IMG/VR virus record: IMGVR_UViG_3300033997_000443
Coordinates: 1-46,545 of that record
From: a virus
Direction: 5' to 3' (one strand)
DNA: 46,545 bases
Numbering within the stretch: the stretch's first letter is position 1; every line of letters begins with the position of its first letter. The translations under genes were made by a program, and so were the position numbers. Positions 7,667 through 22,389 of this stretch are shown here, in pieces. The notes below the pieces were generated by a model. It made no database searches, was not told the origin of the DNA, and saw only the letters and a program-made list of their open reading frames with translations.

Positions 7667-8221
7667 TTAAAAAGAATAATAGATTGAACCAAAGATATTA
7701 TGTAAAGAATTATACCCTAATCTGAAACCTAGAGAATTATGTAATTCTTTTTTTAATGAATAATCTATAAAAGCTTCTGCTGTTATAGTTGATTTTTTAT
7801 CTGCATAAAAATATGTACCGTATTCATCTTTAATACTATCAAAGTCATAAACAACATTTTCTACTGTTATTTTTTGTTTTATTCCATACCCTAAACCTGC
7901 TCCAAAAGAAAAATTAGAATCTTTAAAATTATAGATAGTACCTAAAGTTATACCAAAAGCAGGCTTATCTTCTGTACTTATAGATAAAGTTTTTTCGGTT
8001 GCAATATCAGAATAATCAATTCCAGAAAAATAATCATATTCTGTATTTAAACCTCTTGCAGCAATATAAAAACCAAAAGAGTTTTGTTTTTTTTGTCCTA
8101 ACTCAAAGTTAAAACCTCCATTTTTTGCCCCACCAAATCCTATAAAATAAGCAGGAGAAGATCCTTGAGCAAAAGCAAAAACAGTAAATCCAATAAGAAA
8201 AAGAGAAAATAGTTTTTTCAT
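7667..8221 (-). CDS. Outer-membrane beta-barrel protein
   Basis: A 184-residue precursor with a clear signal peptide (about 1-19, ending FAFAQ). An alternating aromatic and glycine-rich strand pattern follows to a terminal SIYYSF, as in small outer-membrane barrels that end in Phe. Strands such as FGFYIAARGL, FSFGAGLGYGI and LGFRLGYNSL support the barrel. Expressed from a lysogen it would sit in the host outer membrane, where such proteins can alter phage adsorption. It is first in a two-gene unit with its own TATATTTG promoter and a terminator. Confidence 0.7.
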   Translation of the reverse strand: MKKLFSLFLIGFTVFAFAQGSSPAYFIGFGGAKNGGFNFELGQKKQNSFGFYIAARGLNTEYDYFSGIDYSDIATEKTLSISTEDKPAFGITLGTIYNFKDSNFSFGAGLGYGIKQKITVENVVYDFDSIKDEYGTYFYADKKSTITAEAFIDYSLKKELHNSLGFRLGYNSLHNIFGSIYYSF

Positions 8222-8237
8222 AGTTAAAAATTTTTAC

Positions 8238-8265
8238 CAAATATAAAAATTTACTGTGATACTTT
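8238..8265 (-). promoter_or_regulatory. Promoter of the outer-membrane protein unit
   Basis: The minus-strand -7 box TATATTTG is at 8245-8238, 16 nt before the ATG at 8221. The decamer AAAGTATCAC (8265-8256) sits 10 nt upstream of the box. The same decamer occurs at the early control region and at 7067-7076. Confidence 0.55.
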
Positions 8266-8273
8266 AAAATAAA

Positions 8274-8296
8274 AACCCCAAGAAATTCTCGGGGTT
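8274..8296 (-). terminator. Terminator of hicAB
   Basis: The stem AACCCC-A-AGAA / TTCT-C-GGGGTT is followed on the minus strand by a T-rich tail (8273-8267). It closes the toxin-antitoxin operon that ends at 8320. Confidence 0.85.
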
Positions 8297-8319
8297 AATT
8301 GTAAGATTAAAAAAGTACC

Positions 8320-8733
8320 TTATACAAAGTGTACTGCTTTTAGGTCGTCTGCTAAATTATGCAAACCTTTTTGTATTTGCAATGCTTTTTTATCAGAAAT
8401 AGGTACTATTCCTTTGCTCCATTTTCTCATTTGGCTTTCATTTATCCCTATAAAACGTGCAAAAGCAGTTTTATTGATCATATAGAAATATTCAAAAAAT
8501 TGCTCTACGTCTATATAAAAATCTAATTTTGCATTTTGCAAACGTTCTGCATCTTCCCATTGCTGTTTTTCTTGGTAATACTCTACAGACATTTCTACCA
8601 CTTCTAAGAAATTTTCTTTTATTTCTTCAAAAGTTTTACCAGCTGTAGTCATCGCAATTCCTTGTTCATCTGGTGCATAAGCACTATAGCCAGTATTAGT
8701 TTTTTCAATAATTACTTTAATTCTAGGTGTCAT
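8320..8733 (-). CDS. hicB: HicB antitoxin
   Basis: A 137-residue antitoxin. Residues 1-60 form the partial RNase-H-like HicB fold (IKVIIEKTNTGYSAYAPDEQG then A-GKTFEEIKENFLE). Residues 75-137 form an HTH DNA-binding domain (NKTAFARFIGINESQMRKWSKG). It should bind and neutralise the HicA toxin encoded just upstream and repress the operon. Two palindromes upstream of hicA are suitable operators. The order hicA then hicB is common for the family. The pair lies in its own unit within the phage accessory block. Confidence 0.9.
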   Translation of the reverse strand: MTPRIKVIIEKTNTGYSAYAPDEQGIAMTTAGKTFEEIKENFLEVVEMSVEYYQEKQQWEDAERLQNAKLDFYIDVEQFFEYFYMINKTAFARFIGINESQMRKWSKGIVPISDKKALQIQKGLHNLADDLKAVHFV

Positions 8734-8767
8734 AAGCTTTAATTTATTTTTTTTTTAAAACAACAGG

Positions 8768-8953
8768 CTATTTAAGGCCTGCTGTTTTTAGAATTTTGTT
8801 ACAAGTTCCGTTGGCTATTTCAGAAGACTGGTGTCTTTCTAGAGAAATTTGCTCTGGTTTTGTAGGGTGCCGGTATATATCGTGCTTTTTTCCGTGCCTG
8901 TGGATATACCAACCATCTTTTACTAGGATTTTCCTAAGTTCTGATACTTTCAT
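8768..8953 (-). CDS. hicA: HicA toxin, mRNA interferase
   Basis: A 61-residue protein that matches the HicA dsRBD-like fold: K-V-SELRKILVKDGW, then HGKKHDIYRHP with the catalytic His (H25 is the likely residue), then ISLERHQSSEIANGTCNKILK. HicA cleaves mRNA when free of HicB. The promoter has a TATCTTTG box with two operator palindromes upstream. Length and motif order are normal, so the toxin is probably intact. In a prophage it may stabilise the lysogen or act against other phages. Confidence 0.9.
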   Translation of the reverse strand: MKVSELRKILVKDGWYIHRHGKKHDIYRHPTKPEQISLERHQSSEIANGTCNKILKTAGLK

Positions 8954-14609: not shown

Positions 14610-15467
14610 TTAAGTTCTTGTTGTTTCAATCAAGAATATGTTGCTTGAGTCTTTAAAAACTCTGAAGCTGATGGTAGAACCTTCTAAAGATTTCCACGCT
14701 ACTCCATCTTTTAATAAGACTACAACGCCTGAAGCAGTTGCTAAAGAATCTGAGCTAAGCGTTGCAGCTTTTGTAGCATCAGAATCTTGACCTACTAATG
14801 TAAGAATGTCTCCTGCTTGTTTTTCTACAGTAGAAATTTCAGCAACTGAGGAAGCAGTACCTTCTTGAATTTTCACCACGTTTACGTTTTCTTCTAAGAA
14901 TTGAATTGCTGTAGAAGCTTGTTCTGGAGTTAATGATTCTTCTGTAATCAGAGAACCTGCATATTCAAAATGCATACTTCTAGAACCGGTAGTTTGTTCA
15001 AAAGAAAATTCAAAACCTGTTTTGTCTTTGTTGCCTTTGAAACCTGGTTTTAGTTTAAGTGGATGGCAATCTGAACCTAGAACCTTGCGAGTTCCGTTTG
15101 CTTTGCACTTATCAAATACAACTACAAAACCTTCTCCTAAATAATTTACCGCAAATTCTGTGGCTTCTATTTCGTCTCCTGGGTGATTTGCTTTGAAAGA
15201 TAATTTGAAATTTTCTGCATCATCTTCTCCTTGCGCTTCGGCAGAATAATCTTTAGAACTTGCAGTAGCATACATAGGAATTGCAAAAGCACCAGGCTTT
15301 AATGACATATTCCCAAGAAGTCTTACTCCTTTGTCATCAGTTGCAGGAAAACCATTTTCCACAAACTCATCTGCTGGAATTAACCACACCAATTTATCAT
15401 TATTGAATTTTGGTGAACCTGCACCAGCGGCAGCAGGTTTTAATAATTTTGGAACGATTATTTTCAT
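14610..15467 (-). CDS. Putative major tail (tube) protein
   Basis: A 285-residue, beta-rich protein between capsid and portal genes. A core of about 1-180 has WLIPADEFVENG, alternating strands and QTTGSRSMHFEYAG, patterns seen in siphovirus tail-tube proteins. A C-terminal extension (about 219-285) repeats a small beta motif that also ends the capsid protein (GDILTLVG, then a strand and DGVAWKSLEG). Such additions often decorate tail tubes. A major tail protein is the best guess; a head decoration protein is the alternative. Confidence 0.55.
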   Translation of the reverse strand: MKIIVPKLLKPAAAGAGSPKFNNDKLVWLIPADEFVENGFPATDDKGVRLLGNMSLKPGAFAIPMYATASSKDYSAEAQGEDDAENFKLSFKANHPGDEIEATEFAVNYLGEGFVVVFDKCKANGTRKVLGSDCHPLKLKPGFKGNKDKTGFEFSFEQTTGSRSMHFEYAGSLITEESLTPEQASTAIQFLEENVNVVKIQEGTASSVAEISTVEKQAGDILTLVGQDSDATKAATLSSDSLATASGVVVLLKDGVAWKSLEGSTISFRVFKDSSNIFLIETTRT

Positions 15468-15495
15468 TATAAAAATTTTAAAAATTAAATGAATA

Positions 15496-15525
15496 AAAAC
15501 TACTCCTTATAAAAGGAGCAGTTTT
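15496..15525 (-). terminator. Terminator or attenuator after the capsid gene
   Basis: A long hairpin (AAAACTACTCCTT with AAGGAGCAGTTTT, one G-U pair on the transcript) is followed on the minus strand by TTTTTATTC. It lies in the 65-nt gap downstream of the capsid gene. Since no good promoter follows, it probably reduces transcription into the next gene without stopping it. Confidence 0.75.
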
Positions 15526-15532
15526 ATAGTTT

Positions 15533-17680
15533 TTATCCTCTAGAAGTTTCGAACCACATTCCTTCAAACTTTTGAAGTTTGATGAATTTAGTTGGAGCAT
15601 CTAATAACGCAGAACCACTAATCAATACAATCTTACCTGTAATTGCTTCTACAGTAAGGGTGTTGGTAGCTTGTCCGTAAATAGTAATTTCAGAACCATC
15701 TACACCGTTTAAGATTTCTGCTAATGTATCAGAAGCAGCACCAGTGTATTTGAACTCAATTCCTTCGTTTGCATCAATTGCATCTGTATCAAATTCTACT
15801 GCGGTAGAATCTGCTTCTGCTAGAGAACCTGTGTTTCTAGAAACTTCTTTCCAAATTCCAGTTGCCAATTTTACCAAAGTAATATCAGTATCTGATTGAG
15901 GATTGAAGTCAGAGCCTAAGTCTAAGTTACCAATAGTTGATGTTTTTTTCTTGATTTTAAAGGTTGTGGTTAAACCAGCATTGCCTTTAATTTTCAAGAT
16001 AGAACCAGTTGCTAATCCATTAATGGTAGTGATGTCTCCCATTAAGTTAGAATCTACGTAATACTTATTGAAAGTAACTTCTAGAATTCCGTTACCTGCT
16101 TCACCATAGATTGGTGCGTAATGATTTGCTGGGAAAATTGGCTCATCATTAATCCAAACGAATTGAGCTTTACCGAAGAAAGGTGAACCTTGTTCTAGTT
16201 TCTTACCAACATAATCAAAACCAGTACCTAGCTTATAATCTGCCATTACTTTGGTATCTCTTTCGTGGTATTGAATTACATATTTGCTTTTTTCTGTAGG
16301 AATGTATTCATCAATTACGATATTTTTATCGTTCGTAATGAACATGATATTTGATCCTTCCAAATCTGGCATTACCTCAAATCTTACGTTTGGATAATCT
16401 TCTGGGCCATTAAGACTCTCTACACCTGTATAGTCATTATTCAAAGCATTTTTAGCTTTTACTGCTTCTCTATAAATATCTCTATTTTTACGAGACCAAT
16501 ACCAAACTAAATTTGGTTGGATTCTTTCTTCCTCAGAAAGTGATTCCATGAATCCTTTTACATAATCTACTGCGTTAGACAGATTAAAAGAACCAACTAA
16601 AGGCTTATAAACTTTTAATCTTTTTTCTACGTCTCTAATTTGGAAAAGTTGAGCTAAAATACCATCTTGACGGAATTGGAATTTACCTGACTTACCTAAA
16701 CCTTTAGGTGTTTTAACATAAATTCCTTTTACACATGCAATTCTGTCTTCTATTCTAGCTTTTCCATCAATTAAACCAGTAAGATAAGCTACAAATGGAG
16801 TTTTATAGCCATCTGAACCGCTAAGATTTTGAATTTCAGAAATCCAAGAAGTTTCTAATTGTTGTAATTGATAGCCTTCGAAAAGTAAATCTATTTGAAT
16901 AGGCCAAACTTTTCTTTGTTCTGCATCTATGTAGAAATCTGCACCAGGAGCAAAACCATTTTTTCTGGCTTGAGTTACATTTGCAACCATAATACCAGCA
17001 GTCATTGTACGGTCTTTTACACCTACATTTTTAGGCCAGAAAGTAGGTAAACCAAATTTATCTCTTTCTAGTTCTAAAAGTTTCTGCGGATTCTGAACAT
17101 AATATTCTTTTAGATCATTGTTCAGTCTTGCGATGGTAGAAGTATCAGAAAAATCTGTTTCTGCCACTACTTTCCCTGCTGCTCTTTGGTTCCATGGTCT
17201 GTTTTCAAAAGCCATAAAAGGAGTTGCATTTTCTGCAAATAAGTGAGTGGTAGAGCTTAACGCCAATACAGCAGCTGCTCCCACTAATTTTCCTTTCATT
17301 CCTGTGCCTACAATTTGACGTACAGCTTCGTCTGGAACTGGAGCATTGGATAGAGCTTCAATAGTTTGTCTTTGTTCTGCAATTGTTTCTGCAGCAGTCT
17401 GCGCCACAGTTGCAGTAGAAGTTCCTTTAGGAGTGTTTACAACTGAAGCTAATTGCTCAAATGCGGCTTGTTTTTCTGCATCTAAACCTGCTTCTTCTTC
17501 TAATACTTCATTGGCGGCTTTTTTGAATTGCTCAAACTTTTCGTCTGGAAATTCTTTTTTCATAGCTGCCTCTTGTTCTGGCGTCAAAGCTAAGCGACCG
17601 TCTTCTCCTTTCGGAAGAGCGTCTACTCCTAAAACTTTTAGACCAAATGCAATTACAGCGGCGAATCTAGTTCTTTTCAT
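15533..17680 (-). CDS. Major capsid protein with scaffold-like N-terminus
   Basis: A 715-residue protein, much longer than a plain HK97-fold capsid. Residues 1-120 are Glu/Lys/Ala-rich and helical (scaffold-like), then a hydrophobic stretch at about 126-150. A capsid-like core (about 155-555) includes DRTMTAGIMVANV, LFEGYQLQQLETSWISE and FDYVGKKLEQGSPFFG. Two C-terminal beta repeats (559-615 and 662-714) each run from a G-S-x-[LI]-x-I motif to W-[KF]-E-x-SR. It directly follows the S49 protease gene, which probably removes the N-terminus during maturation. The repeats also occur in the tail-tube candidate and may be surface decoration. Confidence 0.75.
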   Translation of the reverse strand: MKRTRFAAVIAFGLKVLGVDALPKGEDGRLALTPEQEAAMKKEFPDEKFEQFKKAANEVLEEEAGLDAEKQAAFEQLASVVNTPKGTSTATVAQTAAETIAEQRQTIEALSNAPVPDEAVRQIVGTGMKGKLVGAAAVLALSSTTHLFAENATPFMAFENRPWNQRAAGKVVAETDFSDTSTIARLNNDLKEYYVQNPQKLLELERDKFGLPTFWPKNVGVKDRTMTAGIMVANVTQARKNGFAPGADFYIDAEQRKVWPIQIDLLFEGYQLQQLETSWISEIQNLSGSDGYKTPFVAYLTGLIDGKARIEDRIACVKGIYVKTPKGLGKSGKFQFRQDGILAQLFQIRDVEKRLKVYKPLVGSFNLSNAVDYVKGFMESLSEEERIQPNLVWYWSRKNRDIYREAVKAKNALNNDYTGVESLNGPEDYPNVRFEVMPDLEGSNIMFITNDKNIVIDEYIPTEKSKYVIQYHERDTKVMADYKLGTGFDYVGKKLEQGSPFFGKAQFVWINDEPIFPANHYAPIYGEAGNGILEVTFNKYYVDSNLMGDITTINGLATGSILKIKGNAGLTTTFKIKKKTSTIGNLDLGSDFNPQSDTDITLVKLATGIWKEVSRNTGSLAEADSTAVEFDTDAIDANEGIEFKYTGAASDTLAEILNGVDGSEITIYGQATNTLTVEAITGKIVLISGSALLDAPTKFIKLQKFEGMWFETSRG

Positions 17681-17700: not shown

Positions 17701-18570
17701 TTAAATTGAATTTAATGTTGCAAGCATCATGGCTTTTTCAATTGCCATTCTTTCATTGCCTATTGCGTCTATCATTCCGTATTCTACAGCTTTTGAAGCA
17801 GAGAATGTAGCACCTGTAAACATACCAGGAACATCTTTAATTCTTGGATTACCTGCTTTTACATCTGCGATGAATTTTTCAGTAGGCTCTCTCATTTCTT
17901 CTGATAAAGAAGTGATGAAAGCTTCATCATTCCCTTCTACAAAATCTACCATTTGTTGCGCTTTATCTGTAGATTGTGGGGCACGAACTACCATTACTTT
18001 ATATCCTTCTTTTTTCATGGCTTCTCTAGAATCCATGACCATGGCAAGTGTACCAATAGAACCAAATCCTGAGCTCACATCGAAATTAGCATAGGTATAA
18101 TCACAGAGTAAAGATTTCATCCAGTAATATCCAGAATAGCAAGAATTAAATAAACCAACGATTGGTTTCTTTTTTTCGAGTTTAAAAGTTTTGAACGCAT
18201 TGATTGCATCAAGAGAACTACCTGGTCCGTCTCCCGAGATAACAATAGCACCGATTGACTCATCATTATTTAAATATCTGAGGATATCAAGATAATCATC
18301 TGCACCTAGCATACAAGCATCACCATAAGCAGGGATGATTCCCGTAATTGGTAATACTACTACTCTTTTTTGGTCTTTTACTTCTCCATTATTCATGGAA
18401 GAATTTCCCGAGGAATCTACCGAAGCAAAAAACTCTTGTCTATTTATTTCAGTTCCTTTGAAATTGCCTTTTAAAAAATCGTTTGCCAATTTTTCAAAAT
18501 GAGGTACAGTGCTCATTTCTAGAACCCATTTCCCACGAATAATTTCAGTAACTAATGCGTTTGTTTTCAT
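17701..18570 (-). CDS. S49-family prohead protease
   Basis: A 289-residue protein of the SppA/S49 serine-peptidase family. It has a strand LPITGIIP (73-80), the GDGPGSSLDAI turn (113-123), CYSGYYWMKSL with likely nucleophile S146, and SSGFGSIG (166-173), as in capsid maturation proteases. It has no signal peptide, so it acts in the cytoplasm on the procapsid. It is the first gene after late promoter L3 and lies 20 nt upstream of the capsid gene. It should process the scaffold-like N-terminus of the capsid. Confidence 0.85.
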   Translation of the reverse strand: MKTNALVTEIIRGKWVLEMSTVPHFEKLANDFLKGNFKGTEINRQEFFASVDSSGNSSMNNGEVKDQKRVVVLPITGIIPAYGDACMLGADDYLDILRYLNNDESIGAIVISGDGPGSSLDAINAFKTFKLEKKKPIVGLFNSCYSGYYWMKSLLCDYTYANFDVSSGFGSIGTLAMVMDSREAMKKEGYKVMVVRAPQSTDKAQQMVDFVEGNDEAFITSLSEEMREPTEKFIADVKAGNPRIKDVPGMFTGATFSASKAVEYGMIDAIGNERMAIEKAMMLATLNSI

Positions 18571-21015: not shown

Positions 21016-22389
21016 TTATGAATTTGTTAATTGTAGTCCTTCTAATCTTGCTTGGTCAGCTGAATTTCCAAGTAAAATAGAGATGTATAAATAATTTGTC
21101 ACAGTTCTATCAAATGGTTTTGAATTTATCGGATTAGATGAAGCTCCACTCGCAGAATAAGAAGGAATTGTAGCTGGGAAACCTTTAATCGCACCACTAT
21201 CTATTAAGAAAATTCTATCTAATCCAGCATATTGATTTGTTGCTGCTATGATAGCAGACTGAAATAGTTGGTCAGTCGTTCCACTTGGCATTGTTGGCGA
21301 AGTTGAAAGTTTACCTCTTATAAATAAAGTCCCATTTGTTCCTATTTTGTTTATGAATAAAATAGGCATATTCAAAAAGCTATTTTCGCTGATGGAATTG
21401 GCAGGTATTTCGATTCTTAAAACTTCCGTTTCAGACATCGTTCCCGTTACCCATGATGAAGGAGTGGTAATTTTTACGTTAAATGCTTTATTTTGTTGTC
21501 TCTCTATTTCTGCGGCAACTCTTGCATTTTCTGCTGTAACTCTTGAACTCTCCGCTGTAACTCTGCTATTTTCAGCAGAAATACGGTTATTTTCGTTTGA
21601 AATGCGGGTATTTTCGGAGTTTACTAAAGTAGATTCTAAAGCATTTAACTCTACTATTTTATCAGTTGCTGGTTTTTGTAATTCTGCTATTTGTGTAGGG
21701 GTAAAATCATCATAGGAAAAAGCATCTCCTTTATCACCCTTGTCACCTTTATCACCTTTAATGCCCTGAATTCCTTGAAGACCTTGTAAACCCATTTCTC
21801 CAGCATCTCCCTTATCTCCCTTATCTCCTTTCTCTCCAGCATCACCCTTTTCTCCTCTCTCTCCTTGTATTCCCTGAATACCTTGAATTCCTTGAATACC
21901 TTGTTCTCCAGTATCGCCTTTGTCTCCTTTGTCGCCTTTTTCTCCTTTTAACAGTGCTATTTGTTCGGGAGTTAGATTTTCAATGTTTAAAGAAAAATTG
22001 TTGATAGCTTTTGAAATAGTTACAGGAATAGAAATTTCTTCAATCTTAATTTCAAAGTTTAGATTATCAGAATTAGCACAATTAGTTGCGTTTTCTGCTG
22101 AAACAATCGAAAGTTCCTCTACCAAAAAAGGCTCATTTCCTAAAGCTCCAAAATCTCCCCAATATTCTATGTTATAGGTTGATTTCTTCAAAGTTTGCAA
22201 CTGTGAAAAATCAAAATTAATAGTACCAGCATTTTTTATTCCTGCTATTTCTAAGATTTTCCCCTGAATGATGTTTTTCACCACAGCTTTGAAAGAATAT
22301 TCTGAAATATCTCCCGCAGTAGTGAGCGTTCTGGAACTAAATTTAGAGCCAAAAACCTCTGTGTTTTGTATTTTTTTGATGTAAGTCAT
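21016..22389 (-). CDS. Collagen-like tail fibre protein
   Basis: A 457-residue fibre. Residues 1-145 form a beta-rich attachment domain. A collagen-like Gly-X-Y block of about 25 triplets spans 149-222. An Asn/Ala-rich trimeric helical segment (about 255-300) has repeated RxTAE/RISAEN units, and a C-terminal globular domain (about 305-457) would bind the host. LTPEQIALLKG and FTPTQIAELQK flank the collagen block, a common phage-fibre layout. It lies 7 nt after the spike gene. Confidence 0.85.
   Translation of the reverse strand: MTYIKKIQNTEVFGSKFSSRTLTTAGDISEYSFKAVVKNIIQGKILEIAGIKNAGTINFDFSQLQTLKKSTYNIEYWGDFGALGNEPFLVEELSIVSAENATNCANSDNLNFEIKIEEISIPVTISKAINNFSLNIENLTPEQIALLKGEKGDKGDKGDTGEQGIQGIQGIQGIQGERGEKGDAGEKGDKGDKGDAGEMGLQGLQGIQGIKGDKGDKGDKGDAFSYDDFTPTQIAELQKPATDKIVELNALESTLVNSENTRISNENNRISAENSRVTAESSRVTAENARVAAEIERQQNKAFNVKITTPSSWVTGTMSETEVLRIEIPANSISENSFLNMPILFINKIGTNGTLFIRGKLSTSPTMPSGTTDQLFQSAIIAATNQYAGLDRIFLIDSGAIKGFPATIPSYSASGASSNPINSKPFDRTVTNYLYISILLGNSADQARLEGLQLTNS

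What the first reader, a model, noticed from the sequence alone, without database searches (positions are those of the whole stretch)
14610..17680. A small beta motif shared by capsid (twice) and tail-tube candidate
Capsid residues 559-615 and 662-714 and tail-tube residues 219-262 all begin G-[SD]-x-[IL]-x-[IL]-x-G and end with a strand and a conserved Trp. Sharing between head and tail proteins suggests a surface decoration unit copied within the virion operon, possibly for adhesion.
Basis: seen in the sequence. Interest (0 to 1): 0.55.

Follow-up and report, generated by a model that had tools for sequence, protein, structure and literature searches.

The report
Domain shared by capsid and tail
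A phage related to known viruses of Bacteroidota carries the same small beta domain at the end of its head-shell protein (twice) and its tail-tube protein (once), and relatives have different numbers of copies, so it looks like an add-on coat, probably for sticking loosely to host sugars.

Summary
The window is a Duneviridae-like siphophage. By predicted fold the 715-aa protein has an HK97 capsid core (209-514) and the 285-aa protein a tail-tube core (about 20-172). Both end in homologous all-beta domains: capsid 531-618 and 620-715, tube 179-285. The window's own three sequences are too diverged to prove it. Profiles from 38 capsid and 37 tube sequences give 95.8-98.6% probability, against at most 13.6% in 33 control comparisons. 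The shared marks are one glycine and a final E-x-x-R, not the Trp. Copies are modular: of 126 non-redundant capsids 58 have two and 68 one; of 124 following tube genes 94 have one and 30 none; Polaribacter phage Leef_1 shows none in either protein. No other ORF among 7527 has it at E <= 0.01. Nearest known family: Phage_depo_C (PF25692), reached by some relatives but not by the window. Best explanation: an outward-facing decoration domain on head and tail, probably binding surface glycans, as Ig-like domains on capsid and tube of mycobacteriophage Douge do. Exposure and binding are inferred, not tested. New variant of a known kind.

The parts
15533..17680 (-). major capsid protein, 715 aa (N-terminal helical region, HK97 core 209-514, two C-terminal beta domains)
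   Evidence: phrog_21862 (function unknown) E 9.6e-107; AlphaFold2 model aligned to HK97-fold capsids over 209-514, Z up to 15.8; follows an S49 protease gene
15827..16090 (-). capsid beta domain 1 (c1), residues 531-618
   Evidence: profile match to c2 and to the tube domain; joint domain HMM, dom E 5.1e-14 (this sequence was in the HMM)
15536..15823 (-). capsid beta domain 2 (c2), residues 620-715
   Evidence: profile match to c1 and to the tube domain; joint domain HMM, dom E 1e-20 (this sequence was in the HMM)
14610..15467 (-). tail-tube protein, 285 aa (tube core about 20-172 plus one C-terminal beta domain)
   Evidence: phrog_19897 (function unknown) E 1.6e-32; model aligned to tail tubes of SPP1 6yeg (Z 7.3, rmsd 4.6, 125 aligned), monocin 8qhs (Z 7.3) and lambda 8k36 (Z 7.0)
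14613..14933 (-). tube beta domain (t), residues 179-285
   Evidence: profile match to both capsid domains; model 181-285 aligned to tailspike depolymerase 24qj 613-699, Z 8.3, rmsd 2.9, 85 aligned
17701..18570 (-). S49-type head maturation protease (context)
   Evidence: PF01343 E 5.5e-10, phrog_53 E 6.3e-21

Best explanation
The capsid and tail-tube proteins of this phage each end in copies (two and one) of one small all-beta domain that is separate from the core folds. The domain was copied within the head-tail operon long ago, and relatives differ in how many copies they keep. It most likely hangs off the outside of head and tail, giving hundreds of copies or more per virion (inferred from the usual copy numbers of these two proteins), and provides weak, many-point binding to host surface polysaccharide before the tail tip engages its receptor. 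Steps: homology and copy-number variation are shown; capsid and tube identity is supported by predicted folds; outward exposure is inferred; glycan binding is inferred by analogy and untested.
For: Profile-profile 95.8-98.6% against at most 13.6% in 33 control comparisons, repeated. HMMs built from one position alone find the others in part of the relatives: c1 and c2 HMMs each hit 14 of 37 distinct tubes and the tube HMM hits 14 of 38 distinct capsids, at domain E under 0.01. In 249 genomes of one bacterial family the c2 profile (E <= 0.001) hits five, and there only ORFs of 714-730 aa and 278-281 aa. The domain is an add-on: capsids with 2 (58) or 1 (68) of 126; tubes with 1 (94) or 0 (30) of 124. 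Domain-free tubes end shortly after the core. Leef_1 capsid (332 aa) and tube (187 aa) match only the cores. Some relatives match Phage_depo_C above its cut-off, and the tube domain's top structural match is a tailspike depolymerase. Precedent: C-terminal Ig-like domains on Douge capsid and tube bind mycobacterial glycans (PMC13033339, section 14 read). The capsid domains diverge faster than the capsid core (mean identity 0.351 and 0.326 against 0.443; 694 pairs).
Against: No binding data, no solved structure, no assembly model. The window's own domains do not reach Phage_depo_C, and 0 of 20 domain sequences tested from other relatives, mostly one-copy phages, do at E <= 0.1. Z 8.3 is barely above what unrelated models reach, and only 2 of the 50 rows cover the tube domain. 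The roles of depolymerase C-terminal domains are themselves disputed between trimerisation and sugar binding (PMC10653864 passages). The tube domain evolves no faster than its core (0.352 against 0.347; 662 pairs), which fits a structural role as well. Most distinct tubes (23 of 37) are not reached by single capsid-domain HMMs.
Confidence: 0.55

Rival explanations
1. Structural cement: the domains contact neighbours on the outside of capsid and tube and stabilise them, as lambda gpV's C-terminal domain partly does, with no role in host contact.
For: Depolymerase C-terminal domains promote trimer formation (PMC10936425 and PMC10653864 passages). Lambda's domain takes part in intra-ring contacts and its loss costs 100-fold activity; [quoted passage not shown] The tube domain is as conserved as the tube core. 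E-x-x-R end invariant in c1 and t.
Against: Relatives do without the tube copy (30 of 124) and with one capsid copy (68 of 126). The same domain in tube rings and icosahedral capsomers would have to serve two different neighbour geometries (inference). The capsid copies diverge faster than the core.
Confidence: 0.25
2. The domains are homologous and exposed but near-neutral passengers, or serve something else such as shielding from host defences.
For: Copy number differs between relatives. [quoted passage not shown]
Against: At least one copy is present in all 126 capsids examined, which include phages of Flavobacterium, Cellulophaga, Bacteroides and Porphyromonas, and argues for selection. 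Some of the search patterns lay inside the domain, which biases this set somewhat.
Confidence: 0.15
3. Chance or convergent resemblance of short beta motifs in unrelated domains.
For: Within the window alone the pairwise scores are at background, and the literal octamer is rare in relatives.
Against: Profile comparisons with controls, cross-hitting HMMs, raw pairwise scores in L003 and L032 beating all 1000 shuffles for all three pairs, and genome-wide specificity.
Confidence: 0.03

Closest known systems
Mycobacteriophage Douge capsid and tail-tube Ig-like domains (PMC13033339)
   Same: HK97 capsid and tail tube both end in a small protruding beta domain; 919 such domains per virion there
   Different: Ig-like domains, unrelated host and phage; there the binding to host glycans was measured, here it was not; one domain per capsid protein there, two here
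Phage_depo_C (PF25692), depolymerase C-terminal beta-sandwich
   Same: Some relatives' capsid domains score above the family cut-off; top structural match of the tube domain is a tailspike depolymerase
   Different: The window's own copies do not reach the family; here the domain sits on capsid and tube, not on a spike
Lambda gpV / T5 pb6 / YSD1 tail-tube C-terminal Ig-like domains (PMC8718954)
   Same: Extra C-terminal domain on a siphophage tube protein
   Different: Big_1/Big_2 Ig-like families; in the passages read, no capsid copy of the same domain is described
Duneviridae (Flavobacterium phages 6H and laban, Cellulophaga phage Ingeline)
   Same: Homologous capsid and tube genes side by side, with the same 2+1 domain layout. 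A Duneviridae capsid (phage 1H) was modelled with AlphaFold before (PMC9855967); the passages I saw do not mention these domains
   Different: Window capsid is only 33-35% identical to 6H and laban (28% to Ingeline); the genes are annotated hypothetical in those records

Membership tests
HK97-fold major capsid protein | HK97 fold over the core | tested here: met
   AlphaFold2 model residues 209-514 against phiRSA1 7oz4 Z 15.8, 264 aligned, rmsd 4.3; HK97 1ohg Z 12.3. Predicted model, mean pLDDT 75.6
HK97-fold major capsid protein | Located next to a prohead protease | tested here: met
   S49 protease gene 17701-18570 directly upstream
Siphophage tail-tube protein | Tail-tube beta-sandwich core | tested here: met
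   Model about 20-172 against SPP1 6yeg, monocin 8qhs, NF5 9m7c, lambda 8k36: Z 7.0-7.3, rmsd 3.9-4.8. Modest values, but most of the listed rows are tube-type proteins; Foldseek itself had no PDB match at E <= 0.001. Related folds (Hcp, stopper, terminator) are in the lists too
Duneviridae | Homologous, adjacent capsid and tube genes | tested here: met
   phrog_21862 and phrog_19897; 6H and laban capsids aligned over 99-100% at 33-35% identity, tubes 97-100% at 28-29%. Formal family assignment not tested
Phage_depo_C (PF25692) | Pfam curated cut-off reached by the window's own domains | tested here: not met
   0 families for the window members; G000 no match
Phage_depo_C (PF25692) | Pfam cut-off reached by homologous domains in relatives | tested here: met
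   Ingeline c1 27.1 bits against cut-off 25, c2 23.6, tube none; 3 of 16 records over the cut-off, 0 of 14 control genomes; at E <= 0.01, 6 of 33 c1 and 6 of 33 c2; tube 2 of 36 only at E <= 0.1; further set 0 of 20
Phage_depo_C (PF25692) | Same fold as a depolymerase C-terminal domain | tested here: inconclusive
   Tube model 181-285 against 24qj 613-699: Z 8.3, rmsd 2.9, 85 aligned, top row but close to the background of 7-8. Whether that part of 24qj belongs to PF25692 was not tested. The capsid domains' own folds were not searched alone
Phage_depo_C (PF25692) | Sits at the end of a phage depolymerase | tested here: not met
   It sits on capsid and tube; no other ORF of 7527 has it at E <= 0.01
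Phage Ig-like domains (Big_1, Big_2, I-set, FN3) | Match to one of these Pfam families | tested here: not met
   None of these four in the tables (one search listed 25 of 28 families). Other Ig-like models only weakly: T26-6p Ig-like E 0.0019 in 1 of 33, HYDIN Ig-like E 0.017 in 1 of 20, Big_3_5 E 0.19 in 1 of 3
Phage Ig-like domains (Big_1, Big_2, I-set, FN3) | Ig-type beta-sandwich fold | tested here: inconclusive
   With one profile (A11) 31 of 35 weak PDB sequence matches (E 0.019-1, short stretches) are Ig-superfamily chains by their names; the other domain profiles gave no antibody-type chains. Topology was not compared
Glycan-binding decoration domain | Measured binding to host surface glycan | not testable with these tools
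   Needs purified domains

The most novel reading that the evidence does not exclude
A depolymerase-type sugar-binding module was captured by a lineage of Bacteroidota siphophages and spread in steps (0+0, 1+0, 1+1, 2+1) onto their capsid and tail-tube proteins. The whole particle, head and tail alike, is thus a multivalent glycan adhesin built on a domain family different from the Ig-like ones known for this job. The single capsid copy in one-copy phages aligns with domain 2, which would make domain 2 the founder.
Probability: 0.4. Interest if true: 0.65.

Novelty: new variant of a known kind. Interest (0 to 1): 0.5.

Why it matters
Decoration of both head and tube with one domain type was shown to bind host glycans in a mycobacteriophage. 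If a different domain family does the same in phages of gut, oral and marine Bacteroidota, then coating the whole particle with weak adhesins has evolved more than once. The natural series with 0, 1, 2 or 3 copies across related phages (Leef_1, Porphyromonas phages, viral contigs, Duneviridae) is a ready-made comparison for testing what such domains do. It also suggests functions for two PHROG families listed as unknown (phrog_21862 capsid, phrog_19897 tail tube).

Tried and rejected
Single-sequence comparison of the three window segments: at background; on its own it would have led to rejection. Pfam on the whole window proteins: only a weak Globin match below its cut-off. PDB sequence searches with the whole proteins or the domain profiles gave no relative I trust; an M60-peptidase match (E 3.7e-4) lies at profile positions 361-447, outside the domains, and was not pursued; one search lists 35 weak matches, 31 of them Ig-superfamily chains, which keeps an Ig-like fold open. 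A stray capsid-domain-1 hit in one genome (G217, E 3.9e-4; ORF of 404 aa read) was judged chance. PHROGs with the domains alone: weak matches to phrog_21413 (E 6.5e-4) and phrog_4017 baseplate (E 0.0051), not followed. The later domain HMM also gave E 0.0043 to Leef_1's protease-fused protein (residues 333-378, in a search of only seven proteins); judged chance, so 'none in Leef_1' means none on its capsid and tube. Recent exchange between head and tail copies was considered; the tree sorts copies by position (2 label changes in all, the least possible), so the copying is old. Domain 2 is not one clade there: 15 rows lie beside the tube clade and 19 beside domain 1 across a weak branch (95/77). 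That fits domain 2 as the source, but the tree is unrooted with few columns, so the order of gains is not shown. The capsid domains' structures were not predicted or searched alone (both prediction jobs went to the whole proteins). PADLOC gave nothing. Loci are partly redundant; one search gives the non-redundant counts, with incomplete capsids, capsids under 550 aa and loci L054-L083 left out beforehand; 2 of its 126 capsids had no readable next gene.

Papers: passages only for PMC9855967, PMC8776804, PMC10276861, PMC10936425, PMC10653864, PMC8718954, PMC10367356; for PMC13033339 passages plus section 14 in full; others only as search listings. I found no description of this domain on capsid and tube in the listings of ten searches of the open library and these passages; subscription papers are not in it.
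Full report
WHAT IS THERE. The two genes lie next to each other on the minus strand, after an S49 protease gene. The 715-aa protein (15533-17680) and the 285-aa protein (14610-15467) match PHROG families of unknown function, phrog_21862 and phrog_19897. Both are homologous along nearly their whole length to genes of Duneviridae: Flavobacterium phages 6H and laban, and over 76% of the capsid to Cellulophaga phage Ingeline. Predicted structures say capsid and tail tube. Residues 209-514 of the larger protein align with HK97-fold capsids (Z up to 15.8). Residues about 20-172 of the smaller align with tail tubes of SPP1, monocin, NF5 and lambda (Z 7.0-7.3), modest values; Foldseek alone found no PDB match at E <= 0.001. 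What is left over at the C-termini, capsid 531-715 and tube 179-285, is the subject of the finding.

CHECK OF THE OBSERVATION. The octamer is present exactly at the three places, nowhere else in 116 window ORFs, and in 0 of 2236 other ORFs of the first related loci; but relatives keep it literally in only 16 of 54 capsids and 3 of 55 tubes. The window's own segments are too diverged to prove kinship: 77, 320 and 98 of 1000 shuffles score as high. Thirty-eight distinct capsid and 37 distinct tube sequences, the window's included, change that; in all 54 loci the tube gene starts 2-71 bases after the capsid gene. Profile comparison gives 98.6% (capsid 1 to capsid 2), 95.8% (capsid 1 to tube) and 96.7% (capsid 2 to tube). 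Thirty-three comparisons with other parts of the same proteins give at most 13.6%; six further ones used windows overlapping domain 1, gave 0.6-99.7%, and are left out of that count. Independent alignments repeat the result. HMMs made from one position find the other protein in 14 of 37 distinct tubes (capsid 1 and capsid 2 HMMs) and 14 of 38 distinct capsids (tube HMM). In phages L003 and L032 the raw sequences of all three pairs beat every one of 1000 shuffles. Across 249 genomes of one bacterial family (that of Aureivirga marina) the capsid-2 profile hits five genomes, and there only ORFs of capsid size (714-730 aa) or of tube size beside them (278-281 aa). The capsid-1 profile hits six, one of them a stray, and the tube profile five.

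CORRECTIONS. The true units are longer than the quoted segments. The Trp is not shared: in the tube it precedes the last two strands, in capsid domain 2 it is W in 23 and F in 15 of 38, and at capsid 610 it is W only in the window. The common marks are the second glycine of the octamer and a final E-x-x-R.

A REMOVABLE MODULE. Searching outward brought in Bacteroides phage BT-TP2, Porphyromonas gingivalis phages and about a hundred viral contigs. The search patterns lie in the capsid core; some of those lie in the domain. Of 126 non-redundant complete capsids, 58 have two copies and 68 have one. Of the 124 with a readable following gene, 94 tubes have one copy and 30 have none. The domain-free tubes end within about 45 residues of the last matched core position. 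No other ORF among 7527 has the domain at E <= 0.01. Polaribacter phage Leef_1 (Helgolandviridae, whose capsid clusters with Duneviridae in PMC9855967, passages) has a 332-aa capsid and a 187-aa tube that match only the cores. The natural states are therefore 0+0, 1+0, 1+1 and 2+1, plus 2+0 in two contigs; contig L004 has two tube genes with one copy each. The single capsid copy aligns with domain 2 in all three one-copy capsids compared. On the tree, domain 1 (support 85/88) and the tube domain (100/100) each form one set, while domain 2 is split by a weak branch; the labels need only 2 changes, the least possible. So the copying is old, domain 2 may be the source, and the order of gains is not shown.

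WHAT KIND OF DOMAIN. Several relatives' capsid domains match Pfam Phage_depo_C, the C-terminal beta sandwich of phage depolymerases, above its cut-off (counts). The window's own copies do not, nor do 20 further sequences, mostly of one-copy phages. The tube domain's top structural match is the tailspike depolymerase Solidus_gp83 (Z 8.3, rmsd 2.9, 85 aligned), suggestive but near background. I therefore call it a distant relative or look-alike of Phage_depo_C, not a member. The usual phage Ig-like Pfam families do not match, but one profile gave weak matches to Ig-superfamily chains (31 of 35 listed) and one public record labels a capsid homologue 'IPT/TIG domain-containing', so an Ig-like fold is not excluded.

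HOW IT PROBABLY WORKS. Placed after the core folds, and missing from some related phages, the domain is an appendage. In Douge, lambda, T5 and YSD1 such C-terminal domains stand outside the tube, and in Douge also outside the capsid. In Douge both were expressed, bound the host surface and host glycans, and loss of surface arabinomannan slowed adsorption. I take weak multivalent glycan binding as most likely (0.55), structural cement next (0.25), passenger or other role 0.15, chance 0.03. The capsid copies diverge faster than the core while the tube copy does not, which does not decide between them.

NOVELTY. A decoration domain on both head and tube is known; this domain family in that role, with its graded copy number across phages of Bacteroidota, I did not find in the searches and passages listed under Tried and rejected.

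Noticed in passing
L004:7224-8039 and 8045-8872: Two tandem tail-tube-like genes in one phage contig, each with one copy of the domain; possibly a mixed tube.
   Followed up: partly
L085:6398-7057, L086:5364-6023: Tube proteins of Porphyromonas gingivalis phages begin with a hydrophobic stretch of about 35 residues, odd for a tail-tube protein.
   Followed up: no
window 15533-17680, residues 1-177: The capsid has a helical N-terminal region (1-112) and a low-confidence stretch (113-177) holding the conserved T-H-L-F motif; it may be a built-in scaffold cut off by the S49 protease.
   Followed up: no
window 15533-17680, capsid core: The capsid profile has a weak sequence match (E 3.7e-4) to M60 peptidase chains 9plw/9pl7 at profile positions 361-447; unexplained.
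   Followed up: no
window 21016-22389: Protein of 457 aa with a collagen-like G-x-y repeat (Pfam Collagen, E 1.4e-15), matching PHROG tail fibre families.
   Followed up: no
L084:4027-7096 (Bacteroides phage BT-TP2): In the public record the capsid homologue is named 'IPT/TIG domain-containing protein' (perhaps after these domains) and the tube homologue 'holin', which does not fit its match to the tube family (E 2.5e-77).
   Followed up: partly
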